From: Tulasnella sp. 424
Lineage: Eukaryota; Basidiomycota; Agaricomycetes; Cantharellales; Tulasnellaceae
Direction of reading: 5' to 3'
Length of the DNA: 64,000 nt
NCBI GenBank assembly: GCA_019633425.1
Contig: WSUB01000106.1
Location: 1-64,000 of the forward strand
A model generated the notes under the pieces. That model saw only the letters and a list, made by a program, of their open reading frames with translations. It did not search any database and was not told the origin of the DNA. Below, in pieces: positions 51,097 to 63,474 of the stretch. Position numbers and translations under genes: made by a program. Position 1 is the stretch's first letter. Every line of letters begins with the position of its first letter.

Positions 51097-52817
51097 CTAT
51101 GCTTTTTTGGGTACATCGTCTGGAAGTGCCCACTCGTCTTCGAATTCAGTCCTGCCCACATCCCATTGTGCAGCGCTTATATACGGTTGTCCCGAGGGGC
51201 CTTTGAAGTGCTTCAGACGTGTCTTCACAGAAGAATGGACCTTTGTAGGGTACCCCTTGGTAGGTTGCCGAATTTTGCGAGACCTGAAGACGTTAGGACT
51301 GGCGCCAAAAGGTCAGGTCGGGAGACGGCACCCCTGGGTTGGGAACAAAACAGACTTACAAGAGGATTGTAATATAAAAGTTGAGGAACTGGATCGTTTC
51401 TAAAAGAGGCCAAAACTCGAGGAACCACCAAAATAGCGAGTCAGTGAATGCACTATGGAACTCGGCGAGTGCGTCATGTCTTTCTTGTTCCACATATTCG
51501 GCCAGTTCTTTATCGCCCTCGGGTTTCCTAACTTTGAAATCCCCCAAGAACTTTTCGTCCCAGAGAATGCTGCTCCACTCGGTGGCTTCGCGAACGATCC
51601 AGCGAAGTGGGATGCGAGAGAGTTGTGCCTTGACTCTGTAGGCCTCCCATCCACCACCCACGTCTAGTATGCGCGAGGTTAAGCCCGAGAACGCGCAAAT
51701 GTTCCATGAATGGAACGCACCTCCATGTCCGCCGGCAAACCAAACTTCTTCGACGGTTCGCTGATCTGCGTCAATGCCCTGTTGATCCTTCTTGGCATGG
51801 GTGACGATTGTCGACCCCTTGTGGGAAGTCTCCCAATAAGCGGCCTTGAACTTGGCTCGTCGCTCGTCCAGCGATAAAGCATGGCGAACATGTTTGACGA
51901 TGGGATTCTTATCAGTGTTAGGGAGGTGACGAGGGAAAAAGCCAACACTCTCGACGGTGTCCCTAATGATGGAACGATGCTTCAGTCACGGTCAAGAAAT
52001 AATGAGAAAAGGGAAATCCTTATTTACCATAAACCAACGAACTCGACCGTAACTTTGCGGGAAAAGGTGCTCCTAAAGTTCTTGCTCAAGTAGCCTCGGG
52101 AATCGTCAGGGTTCTCCTTGAAGATCTTGTCCTCCTTCCCTGACTCCTTAAAGATCTTGTAAGCGAATGGGATTTGTTCGGAGTTGCAAGTGGGTAGAAG
52201 GCCGACACGGTAAAGCATTGCTGCGAGCGCCCTGAACGACCGCGATCATCAGTCCCGACCTCCCGGACAAGCATGCATTGCACCCTTACCTAGCCGTATA
52301 AGCACCTCGACTGAAGCCGAACAGGCAGATTTTATCTCCGGCCCGGTACGTTTCCATCAAGAACTTGTAGCCACCCAACTAAAAGCCCAACCCCAAGTCA
52401 ATTCTTGCGAGCTAGAGGGCAAGCTGAAGAAAGGAGGGCTTACAACATGGTCTTCTAGATACCATGCAAAAGCTTCATCAAGAGCCCGCGCGACTTGGGC
52501 ACCAATCGCGGACATGAAACCAGTGGGAGCGTAGGTACCGATGCCGGTCTGATAGTACACGAGCTGATGTTCGGGATTGTCGCGCTTGAGCATCTGGAAG
52601 AGCAGTACGACATTGCTGTTCTGCCACGATCAACAGTAAATGCGTCAGCCTGGGCTAATTCGTCACCAAGGTATGATAGGCTGAAAAAACAGACCTTGTC
52701 ATGCTCGAATCTATTGCCGGTACCGTCGAAGCATAGAACGAGCGTACGGGGACACTTGGAATGTTCTTCACTGGGAGACGGAACCAACGTCGTGTGAGGG
52801 GAAACTGGAGAAGACAT
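51097..52817 (-). CDS. DUF2235 (Tle1-like) serine hydrolase, unit A
   Basis: Seven-exon gene of about 445 residues. Exon 1 (52695-52817) is MSSPVSPHTT..PRTLVLCFDGTGNRFEHDK. Exon 2 (52444-52620) is NSNVVLLFQML..LVYYQTGIGTYAPTG. Exon 3 carries the GxSxG nucleophile elbow in KICLFGFSRGAYTAR. Exon 4 starts ALAAMLYRVGLLP and ends VTVEFVGLW. Exon 5 is DTVESVGFFPRHLP..VEEVWFAGGHG. Exon 6 starts DVGGGWEAYRVKAQLSRIPL, so the His-x-Asp-Val-Gly-Gly motif is formed across the splice, and ends in a hydrophobic WWFLEFWPLLETIQFLNFYI segment. Exon 7 reads SPNVFRSRKIRQPTKGYPTK to DEWALPDDVPKKA. DUF2235 proteins share the alpha/beta-hydrolase core of bacterial Tle1 phospholipases; fungal substrates are unknown. 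No signal peptide. Confidence 0.88.
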
Positions 52818-52940
52818 GGTTGTAATGAGAGGTAAGAAGTTGGATGTCGAATTAGAGGGAGAGGGTTTTTTTTTTTTTTTTTTCAGGACAAGGCTCTTGT
52901 GCCGTTTTATTGGTCGTCCCACCGCCTCCCGCCTAGTGTT
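52818..52940 (-). promoter_or_regulatory. Proximal 5' region of unit A with long A/T homopolymer
   Basis: Conserved with units B and C (AGGCTCTTGTG, TTTTATTGGTC), but interrupted by an unbroken run of T on the plus strand around 52866-52883, about 50 nt before the ATG. Units B and C have only short T runs at this place. Confidence 0.5.
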
Positions 52941-53390
52941 GCCGCTGGTCTTTCTCGGTTCGGTTCGGTTCGGTTCGGTCTCGAAACCGGTCTCACTATT
53001 CAAGAATGTCGGTTTGGGGCTCCGATTTATAAACCGAGCACAGAACCGAACCCCCCCAAATCGGTTCTTAAATCGGTTCGGAGGTCTGCATTGGAGCGAT
53101 CCCTGAAATGCCGAAGTTTCCCCGTTGTTTTTGTTTAGATAACTACTCACGGAAATTGTCCTCTAAGCGGCGATCTCGTCGCATGGAGTCCGATTTTCCG
53201 TAACTAGAAATGGACAGAACGTGAAGTTTTGACAGGCGAGTAGTCAGAAGTTGGCTCACCAAAGAACCATTTCGGAACCGGTTTGGGCTCGGGCTCGGAA
53301 CCAGTTCGACTTCAAAGGAATTAAAGTCGGTTTGCGGGGGTTCTAGTTGCAAACCGAACAGAGGCTTTTGCAAATTGACATTTAGCGCTC
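52941..53390. mobile_element. CGGTTC-rich insertion upstream of unit A
   Basis: Units B and C match unit A up to about TTTTATTGGTC and again near 53390-53500, but the ~440 nt between are unrelated. The insert has five tandem TTCGG units at 52956-52980, then many variants such as GAAACCGG, AACCGAAC and GGAACCGG in two similar halves (52.96-53.09 and 53.26-53.36 kb). There is no coding frame. Probably a non-autonomous dispersed element; ends and target-site duplication are not resolved. Confidence 0.45.
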
Positions 53391-61445: not shown

Positions 61446-61756
61446 TACAGACATGCTCTTAAATTTTGACGTTTTGGGACTTGGCTACGGGTTCCTTGGC
61501 TCAGGCTTCCGGGGAGGTCTACCTGCCGCTTACAAAGTCAGATCATGCATCTGCCGCTCTCTCTCTGTTGAAACCCCCCGGAAAGCTCGTTTCAGCTAGA
61601 AATAGAGCTTAGGAACAAGTATGCCTCCGTATTTTCTTCAACAAGGCCTTGTGTCTTGGTGTTGTGCCGAACGCAGAATCAAGGTAACCTTAAAGTACTG
61701 CCGAAAAACGAGGGCAAGACGCATAATTTGACAATAGATACTCTACTCTAAACAGA
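61446..61756. other. Spacer between units E and F
   Basis: Unique sequence with no hydrolase similarity that I can see; holds the 3' end of unit F. Confidence 0.45.
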
Positions 61757-63474
61757 CTATGTCGACTTCTTGACATCTTCAGGAAGGGCCCACTCGTCAA
61801 CAAACGTGGTCAATTGGGGATCCCACTGCGCCGCGTTCTCGTATCCTCCCGGTAAATGCGTTTGCCGCGTCCTCACTGATGAATGAACTTTAGTTGGCTG
61901 CTCAACGGTTGGTTCTTTGATCTTTCGGGCGCTCCACCAATTCGGACTGACGAAGGCGGGGGCGTTACGGTGAGTTCACTTTCCATTGAATTCGCAAAAG
62001 GAACATACCGGCGGAGGAATTTGAATCTGTAGCCCCAAGCTTCAACACTTCCCACTAAAGGAATAGCTTCGAGGATTTTCCAGAGGTATCGGCGGCCTGA
62101 ATCCGTGAATGCACTATGGAACTTGCTAACAGCGTCCAGCTTTTCTCGCTCGATATACTTGGCTACAGCATCCGCATTGTTGCTATCCGGTTGATGGACG
62201 CCGAGCTTCTCCAGACCGACTTCGTTCCACAGAATGGTCGGGACACATTTTTTCGCTTCACGGACCATCCACCGAAATGGGATTCGAGCCAGCTGTGACC
62301 TCTCGGAATACTTTTCCCAGCCTCCGCCAACATCTACCAAGCCAAGAAAAGGTCAGAAAATAAACCAGTTGACGAATTCAGCCAAAAGTCATACCACCGT
62401 GTCCTCCGGCAAACCAGACTTCTTCGACTGTTTGTTCGACAGATTTAAATCCCTTCTGACCGCTCTTGTCATCTCCAATCGCATTCCGTGAGATCGATGG
62501 AGCATTCCAGTAGTTGGCCTTAAATTTCACGCGCCGTTCATCGAGAGCTAGTGCATGGCGGACGTGCTTGACAATCCGGTTTGTTCTGGTGTTCGGAAGC
62601 GTTTCAGGAACAAGCCCGACACTTGCAACGGTGTCCCTGAGCACAGGACGTCGTTAATTAATGGAGTACTTTGTATTAGAGCTCGAAATTTCATGCTTAC
62701 CAGAGGCCAACAAATTCCACTGGAACTTTACGAGAGAATGTATTCGTAAAGTTTTTGCTATGATGGCCTCGCGGATCGGTGGGGTCTTTCTGATAGATTG
62801 CGAACTCTTTTGGTGAATTCTTGAAGATCTCGTAAGCAAAAGGAATTTGTTCCGCATTACGCGGCGGTAGCAAACCGACACGGAAAAGCATAGCTGCAAG
62901 GGCTCTGGACAATACTATTAGTACTTGCTCAGAGCGCGACCGTTAAACGAACCTTGCAGTGTAGGCACCCCGACTGTACCCAAATATACATATCTTATCA
63001 CCCTCTTCATACGTATCCATTAAAAATTTGTAACCGGCCATCTATAGATCTGATGCTCAGACATGCAGCTTCGAACCGCACATCGATCTTGCTTGCCGCG
63101 AACTCACAACATGGTCCTGTAAATACCAGGCAAATGCTTCGTCTAGCACTCGAGCAACCTTCTGACCAATGCTCGATATCAACCCTGGTGGGGCAGTGGT
63201 CCCAATCCCAGTTTGGTAGTAAACAAGCTGCTCCTTCGGTTTGTTCCTCTCGAGCAAAGAAAAGAGGAGAACAACGTTGGTATTCTACGATAGTCAAACG
63301 ATTTGAGCAGAATTAGAACATCAACTGAACAAAGTGTCGTGGAACGGGGAACATCACCTTGTCATCCCTGAATTGGTTGCCGGTCCCATCGAAACAAAGA
63401 ATGAGAGTGCGGCCTTTTCGAGGTTCAGGCTTGCCATTGACTGGACGAGCTTGGGACGGTTGCGGTTCTGACAT
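61757..63474 (-). CDS. DUF2235 (Tle1-like) serine hydrolase, unit F (divergent)
   Basis: The most diverged full-length copy, with the same seven-exon layout. Start MSEPQPSQARPVNGKPEPRK, then LILCFDGTGNQFRDDK. Exon 2: NTNVVLLFSLLERNKPKEQL and YYQTGIGTTAPPG. Exon 3 has GYSRGAYTAR instead of GFSRG. Exon 4: ALAAMLFRVGLLPPRNAEQI. Exon 5: DTVASVGLVPETLPNTRTNR to VEEVWFAGGHG. Exon 6: DVGGGWEKYSERSQLARIPF and a C-terminal YLWKILEAIPLVGSVEAWGY segment, followed by a linker absent from A, B and D. Exon 7: SPNWWSARKIKEP to TTFVDEWALPEDVKKST. No disruption seen; the F lineage predates the A-D duplications. Confidence 0.88.

What the first reader, a model, noticed from the sequence alone, without database searches (positions are those of the whole stretch)
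51097..63474. Six-unit tandem array of Tle1-like (DUF2235) hydrolase genes
Seen: six head-to-tail units on one strand share exon layout and motifs (CFDGTGN, GIGT, G-F/Y-SRG-AYTAR, GGHG-DVGGGW, DEWALP). Known: DUF2235 shares its catalytic core with bacterial Tle1 phospholipase effectors. Inference: a lineage-specific cluster under birth-and-death evolution, possibly acting on lipids in defence, competition or self/non-self responses. The fungal role is undescribed as far as I know.
Basis: partly seen in the sequence, partly recalled or inferred. Interest (0 to 1): 0.75.

Follow-up and report, generated by a model that had tools for sequence, protein, structure and literature searches.

The report
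Tandem fungal Tle1-like hydrolase gene array
A fungus of the orchid-associated genus Tulasnella carries a row of duplicated genes, four apparently intact and two broken, for an enzyme family whose bacterial relatives attack membrane lipids; the array is real and evolves by duplication and loss, but it looks like an ordinary expansion of a known family whose job in fungi is still unclear.

Summary
The array is real and its end coordinates are exact, but it is not six equal units. Four units look intact (U1, U2, U4, U6; 443-448 aa; seven exons, the same six intron phases). U3 has lost its 3' half; U5 keeps only part of the last two exons and is frameshifted. The four intact proteins match PF09994 (Tle1-like catalytic domain) at 5.6e-90 to 6e-89. 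They keep Ser, Asp and His motifs that align in order with solved bacterial relatives at profile level.

The genome is Tulasnella sp. 424 or 425. PF09994 occurs at 37 loci or fragments in it, and 6288 of 7999 scored database candidates match.

The "species-specific clade" prediction fails for the whole array (AU p = 2.8e-9): a U1-U4 type and U5/U6-like types occur in other Tulasnella species, and two or three types appear to share a contig in two of them. Only U1-U4 could be a young expansion (p = 0.36, not rejected). Two dead copies, a mosaic U3 and a repeat at U3's truncation point support birth-and-death; dN/dS is 0.12-0.33 among U1-U4.

Lipid-ester hydrolysis inside the cell is the likeliest activity, by homology only. 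A defence or competition role is untested. New member of a known kind.

The parts
51097..52817 (-). U1: intact PF09994 gene, 446 aa; exons 52817-52695, 52620-52444, 52378-52290, 52231-52028, 51962-51721, 51663-51360, 51298-51097
   Evidence: PF09994 5.6e-90; database model P0004 (FRC04_000754, 428 aa) lacks an internal stretch in exon 6
53770..55491 (-). U2: intact PF09994 gene, 448 aa, seven exons
   Evidence: 6e-89; database model P0006 (FRC04_000755, 393 aa) starts inside exon 2
56364..57253 (-). U3: 3'-truncated copy, exons 1-4 plus about eight codons of exon 5; 5' part U1-like, 3' part U2-like
   Evidence: PF09994 1.3e-54 on 197 aa; 4 of 12 permutation tests significant, p 0.0002-0.0004
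56156..56363 (.). about 210-bp interspersed repeat lying at the point where U3 loses homology to the other units
   Evidence: 19 further matches outside C9, 74-88% identical, many of them partial
58684..60372 (-). U4: intact PF09994 gene, 443 aa, seven exons; motif residues Ser123, Asp199, His278
   Evidence: (2.3e-89); database model FRC05_000773 (P0001, 434 aa) starts at an internal Met
60913..61444 (-). U5: 5'-truncated, frameshifted remnant (part of exon 6, and exon 7)
61757..63474 (-). U6: intact PF09994 gene, 447 aa, seven exons; the divergent unit (59-60% aa identity to U1, U2, U4)
   Evidence: (1.2e-89); identical to FRC04_000758 (P0013)
55679..56150 (.). segment upstream of U2, about 80% identical to 57596-58077 upstream of U3: duplicated 5' flank
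57596..58077 (.). matching duplicated 5' flank upstream of U3

Best explanation
A tandem array of paralogous PF09994 (DUF2235, Tle1-like) alpha/beta-hydrolase genes in Tulasnella, growing and shrinking by duplication of unit plus 5' flank, sequence exchange and truncation, within a wider family of 37 loci or fragments in the genome. Shown: family membership, the Ser, Asp and His motifs, gene structures, two dead copies, dN/dS below 1, and an age of the unit types greater than this species. Inferred: each intact gene makes a cytosolic (leaderless) serine ester hydrolase that uses Ser123-Asp199-His278 (U4 numbering) to cleave acyl esters, most likely of phospholipids or related lipids at the inner face of fungal membranes, possibly during wall or membrane remodelling and stress or antagonism. 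The copies would supply dosage and substrate variants through the variable stretch before the catalytic His and the C-terminal region.
For: PF09994 at 5.6e-90, 6e-89, 2.3e-89 (U1, U2, U4) and 1.2e-89 (U6). A 36-sequence profile matches PDB 9j3f (named Tle1 phospholipase domain-containing protein, 2.1e-11) and 4o5p (5.4e-6), with the SRG, DTV.SVG and H.DVGGG blocks in order. The nucleophile elbow is read in 31 of 37 genome loci. dN/dS 0.12-0.33 over the six pairs among U1-U4, Nei-Gojobori counts. Highest 19-residue hydropathy near the N-terminus is 0.26 over the four proteins, so no signal-peptide-like segment. 98 exon-level matches in the genome; hits of my own profile grouped to 37 loci. Trees and AU tests; mosaic U3; repeat at the U3 breakpoint.
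Against: Single-sequence similarity to 4o5p is insignificant (E 0.66); in the profile search each block is weak on its own and only the whole-sequence score is significant, and chance-like hits (mechanosensitive channel chains, E 0.35-0.40) follow in the same list. Lipid hydrolysis is carried over from bacterial Tle1, and alpha/beta hydrolases have many substrates. Several deep nodes of the 68-sequence tree are weak (42-60), and some rows are fragments or partial database models.
Confidence: 0.6

Rival explanations
1. Conflict or defence arsenal: the copies are cytosolic membrane-damaging lipases or self/non-self effectors kept diverse by selection from competitors, parasites or incompatible mates, like fungal NLR effector domains or bacterial Tle1 toxins.
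For: Relatives are toxins in bacteria (PMC3482391, passages). DUF2235 is among the domains upregulated in Armillaria in interaction with Trichoderma (PMC10269595, one passage). A gene named YEL023C is in the top 10 upregulated genes at 24 and 48 h, though not in the 72 h list, in Trichoderma under simulated mycoparasitism (PMC10055783, passages). Turnover and dead copies. A fast-changing stretch with length differences before the catalytic His.
Against: dN/dS well below 1 at gene level. None of the 91 scored NACHT matches lies within 70 kb of a PF09994 locus on the same contig (91 of 165 candidates scored, and several PF09994 contigs are shorter than 70 kb, so this test is limited). No PADLOC match for the two proteins scanned, U4 and U6. 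No second Pfam domain in the four window proteins or in the 12 relatives scanned.
Confidence: 0.15
2. Housekeeping lipid or wall ester hydrolase (YEL023C-like) with copies in excess and no role in conflict; the expansion is neutral or dosage-driven.
For: Large family: 6288 of 7999 scored candidates at E <= 0.001, of which the 120 listed are fungal where an organism is named; dN/dS below 1; [quoted passage not shown]
Against: 37 loci and local turnover are more than a housekeeping role needs; the U4-like and U6-like types have stayed distinct in several Tulasnella species.
Confidence: 0.22
3. Mostly decaying duplicates: the array is a graveyard and only one unit is functional.
For: 2 of 6 units are broken.
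Against: Four intact frames with GT-AG introns and the Ser, Asp and His motifs, and dN/dS 0.27-0.33 among U1, U2 and U4.
Confidence: 0.03

Closest known systems
PF09994 / DUF2235, 'T6SS phospholipase effector Tle1-like catalytic domain', in other Agaricomycetes (Rhizoctonia, Mycena, Lentinula and others in the hit lists)
   Same: Same domain over its full length in U1, U2, U4, U6; same motifs and a conserved C-terminal part in the 36-sequence consensus
   Different: Tulasnella copies here are 443-448 aa, many listed relatives 500-740 aa; the pattern of exon hits suggests a different intron layout at most other loci of the same genome, C35 excepted (not spliced)
Bacterial Tle1 (PDB 9j3f by its name; 4o5p is named uncharacterized in the listing, its identity as Tle1 is recalled)
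   Same: Catalytic blocks in the same order at profile level
   Different: No significant similarity in a single-sequence search; the bacterial secretion setting is not expected in a fungus (not searched); C-terminal region of the fungal proteins not matched
Tulasnella calospora M407DRAFT_45482 / 21822 / 21819 (all listed with a contig of 260,110 b) and sp. 408 FRC00_004604 / 004603 (both listed with 6,934 b)
   Same: Related unit types apparently kept on one contig; that it is the same contig is inferred from the equal lengths and numbering
Saccharomyces cerevisiae YEL023C
   Same: Family relative by the name that sources give to some homologues
   Different: Sequence not compared here; function poorly known

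Membership tests
PF09994 (Tle1-like catalytic domain / DUF2235) | Match above the curated cut-off (27 bits) | tested here: met
   298.6-302 bits for U1, U2, U4, U6; 186 bits for the U3 piece
PF09994 (Tle1-like catalytic domain / DUF2235) | Ser (G-F/Y-SRG), Asp (DTV.SVG) and His (G.H.DVGGG) motifs in order | tested here: met
   U1, U2, U4, U6; same order as in the solved relatives
Tle1 phospholipase effector (functional class) | Phospholipase A activity | not testable with these tools
   needs biochemistry
Tle1 phospholipase effector (functional class) | Delivery by a type VI secretion system, with cognate immunity protein | not tested
   eukaryotic genome; no search for a T6SS or an immunity homologue was made
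Species-specific birth-and-death array | All units form one species clade | tested here: not met
   AU p = 2.8e-9
Species-specific birth-and-death array | U1-U4 form one species clade | tested here: inconclusive
   AU p = 0.36; the ML tree groups the sp. 427 protein with U1-U3 (support 92) and leaves U4 outside
Species-specific birth-and-death array | Dead copies and sequence exchange | tested here: met
   U3 and U5 broken; U3 mosaic, 4 of 12 tests at p 0.0002-0.0004
Fungal NLR-linked effector | Fusion or close linkage to NACHT genes | tested here: not met
   nearest on a shared contig is about 75 kb, on C124; 91 of 165 NACHT candidates scored, several contigs too short to test

The most novel reading that the evidence does not exclude
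PF09994 multigene arrays in Tulasnella (37 loci or fragments here) form a diversifying cytosolic lipase arsenal, recruited from bacterial toxins, that acts in fungal self-protection, incompatibility or antagonism in orchid-associated fungi, with the stretch before the catalytic His as the diversified recognition or substrate-gating part.
Probability: 0.12. Interest if true: 0.65.

Novelty: new member of a known kind. Interest (0 to 1): 0.25.

Why it matters
As far as I know PF09994 is a large fungal family without an established function. A compact array with four intact paralogues of two old types, plus two dead copies, is a convenient place to ask whether these proteins are lipases at all and whether expansion tracks antagonism. 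On its own the array looks like an ordinary expansion of a described family.

Tried and rejected
Six equal units: rejected. Species-specific origin of the whole array: rejected. U5 and U6 as sister copies: AU p = 0.033 rejects it, p-SH 0.216 in the same test does not. Sequence exchange among U1, U2 and U4: not significant (p 0.08-0.21); the U1-U3-U4 triplet also not significant (p 0.17-0.20). Linkage with NACHT genes: none within the limits. PADLOC and NCBIfam: no match for U4 and U6, the two proteins scanned. Rfam: no match in the window at gathering score. A repeat at the U5 break: window 61400-61760 matched only itself in the genome. The stretch between U1 and U2 (52860-53560) matched one other contig and part of 57586-57663. 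Transcript evidence from short unnamed contigs (P0011, P0012): left out, because their lengths would fit spliced or unspliced genes alike. Structure prediction and fold comparison: not possible.

Paper searches for a described fungal role. The last is uninformative: any two of five terms were enough, and none of the 20 listed papers holds DUF2235. Of the listed papers, passages of five were read, the rest seen only as listings; most subscription papers are not held.
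Full report
What is there. On the minus strand of the window, between a tuberin (TSC2)-like gene (ORFs at 44143-50442 with Rap_GAP, Tuberin and DUF3384 domains) and a stretch whose next 20 kb gave no PF09994 hit (L030 and L031), lie six related units. Exon mapping by tblastn, splice-site inspection and splicing give four complete genes: U1 52817-51097 (446 aa), U2 55491-53770 (448 aa), U4 60372-58684 (443 aa) and U6 63474-61757 (447 aa). Each has seven exons, six introns of 48-77 bp starting GT and ending AG, and phases 0,0,2,2,1,2 at matching residues. U6 equals the database protein FRC04_000758. 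The database models of U1, U2 and U4 are shorter than mine.

Two units are broken. U3 (57253 to about 56364) keeps exons 1-4 and about eight codons of exon 5, then meets an interspersed repeat of about 210 bp (56156-56363; 19 further matches outside C9, 74-88% identical, many partial). On its other side the repeat abuts a segment that is about 80% identical to U3's own 5' flank (55679-56150 against 57596-58077). U5 (about 61444-60913) keeps part of exon 6, with a frameshift, and exon 7. Of the six motif pieces searched, all occur in 4 of 6 units.

What it is. The four intact proteins match only PF09994 in Pfam (E <= 0.1), over the full 287-position profile, at 5.6e-90 to 6e-89. A profile of 36 fungal relatives (A1) finds two solved proteins: 9j3f, named a Tle1 phospholipase domain-containing protein, at 2.1e-11, and 4o5p at 5.4e-6 (named uncharacterized in the listing; that it is Tle1 is recalled). 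The SRG, DTV.SVG and H.DVGGG blocks align in order; the FDGT.N block aligns too, in 4o5p with a negative score. Each block is weak alone; the sum is significant. With a single sequence the match is not significant (E 0.66). In U4 numbering the motif residues are Ser123, Asp199, His278; that they are catalytic is inferred from this alignment and from recall of the Tle1 literature. No hydrophobic N-terminus was seen, so the proteins are probably cytosolic.

Whose it is. That Tulasnella species are orchid mycorrhizal fungi in Cantharellales is recalled.

How widespread it is. The own genome (46.8 Mb, 448 contigs) holds 98 exon-level PF09994 matches. I grouped hits of my own profile into 37 loci, 6 in the window and 31 elsewhere; 26 of those 31 lie on contigs with two or more (C40, C147, C124, C179, C392, C312), and some are fragments at contig ends. 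31 of 37 show the nucleophile elbow. The database search scored 7999 candidates and 6288 passed E <= 0.001; the second search, with U6, gave 3772 of 7999. Each lists only the best 120.

How it evolved. A midpoint-rooted tree of 68 sequences holds 35 of the 120 database proteins then held, 27 other genome loci and 6 units (4 short loci dropped; 5 window loci replaced by the gene models; for the counts). It puts U1-U6 and one further own locus (C35) in a clade of Tulasnella and unnamed environmental sequences, apart from the other own paralogues. A tree of 28 sequences shows two groups, a U1-U4 type (support 61 here, 99) and U5/U6-like types (100 here, 99), each with members in T. calospora, sp. 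408 and UAMH 9824. Monophyly of all six units is rejected (AU p = 2.8e-9); U5+U6 is marginal (AU p = 0.033, p-SH 0.216); U1-U4 is not rejected (p = 0.36). The ML tree groups the sp. 427 protein with U1-U3 (support 92) and leaves U4 outside, so a species-level origin of U1-U4 is open. The arrangement is therefore probably older than this species.

Turnover is visible. U3 is a mosaic, U1-like in its 5' part and U2-like in its 3' part: 4 of 12 permutation tests over four triplets are significant, p = 0.0002 (two, U1-U2-U3) and 0.0004 (two, U2-U3-U4); the U1-U2-U4 and U1-U3-U4 triplets are not. Pairwise dN/dS among U1-U4 is 0.12-0.33 (pairs with U3 over 197 codons only); with U6, dS is saturated. 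The most variable internal stretch is the window 241-280, which ends just after the catalytic His, with dN 0.27-0.42 and dS 0.25-0.81 over three pairs; in one pair dN slightly exceeds dS, and this was not tested further.

What it does. The best-supported reading is an intracellular serine ester hydrolase on lipid substrates; activity and substrate are inferred. Leads on role are thin. [quoted passage not shown] DUF2235 is among domains upregulated in Armillaria in interaction with Trichoderma (PMC10269595, one passage). A gene named YEL023C is in the top 10 upregulated genes of Trichoderma at 24 and 48 h of simulated mycoparasitism, not in the 72 h list (PMC10055783, passages). A Botrytis DUF2235 gene is downregulated in angiosperms and raised in a moss (PMC7824268, one passage). 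None of these passages tests the protein's activity.

Against a defence reading: no PADLOC match for U4 and U6, no NACHT match within 70 kb on a shared contig among the 91 of 165 candidates scored (several PF09994 contigs are too short for this test), and dN/dS below 1. For it: the toxin kinship, the turnover and the expression leads. I put it at 0.15 as a rival.

Verdict. The family assignment is right, the lineage-specific reading fits Tulasnella as far as sampled but not this species for the whole array, and the array is a new member of a known kind. Interest 0.25.

Noticed in passing
window 56156-56363: About 210-bp interspersed repeat with 19 further matches on other contigs of the genome (74-88% identical, many partial); no Rfam match in the window.
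   Followed up: partly
window 44143-50442: Tuberin (TSC2)-like gene next to the array on the same strand (Rap_GAP, Tuberin, DUF3384 on successive ORFs).
   Followed up: partly
window 15740-18289: ORF with GATase, IGPS and PRAI domains: the fused fungal tryptophan biosynthesis enzyme (name recalled).
   Followed up: no
window 27478-29187: ORF with Nab2-type CCCH zinc fingers.
   Followed up: no
window 34334-35272: ORF with an APH-type phosphotransferase domain.
   Followed up: no
own genome, ends of C40, C147, C194: PF09994 fragments lie at contig ends, so assembly breaks may fall inside such arrays and the count of 37 may be off.
   Followed up: no
own genome: 91 NACHT matches over the cut-off on many contigs: possibly a large NLR-like repertoire (the profile also exceeds its cut-off in 3 of 14 control genomes).
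   Followed up: no
L030:6397-7596: F-box-like ORF on the far side of the array.
   Followed up: no
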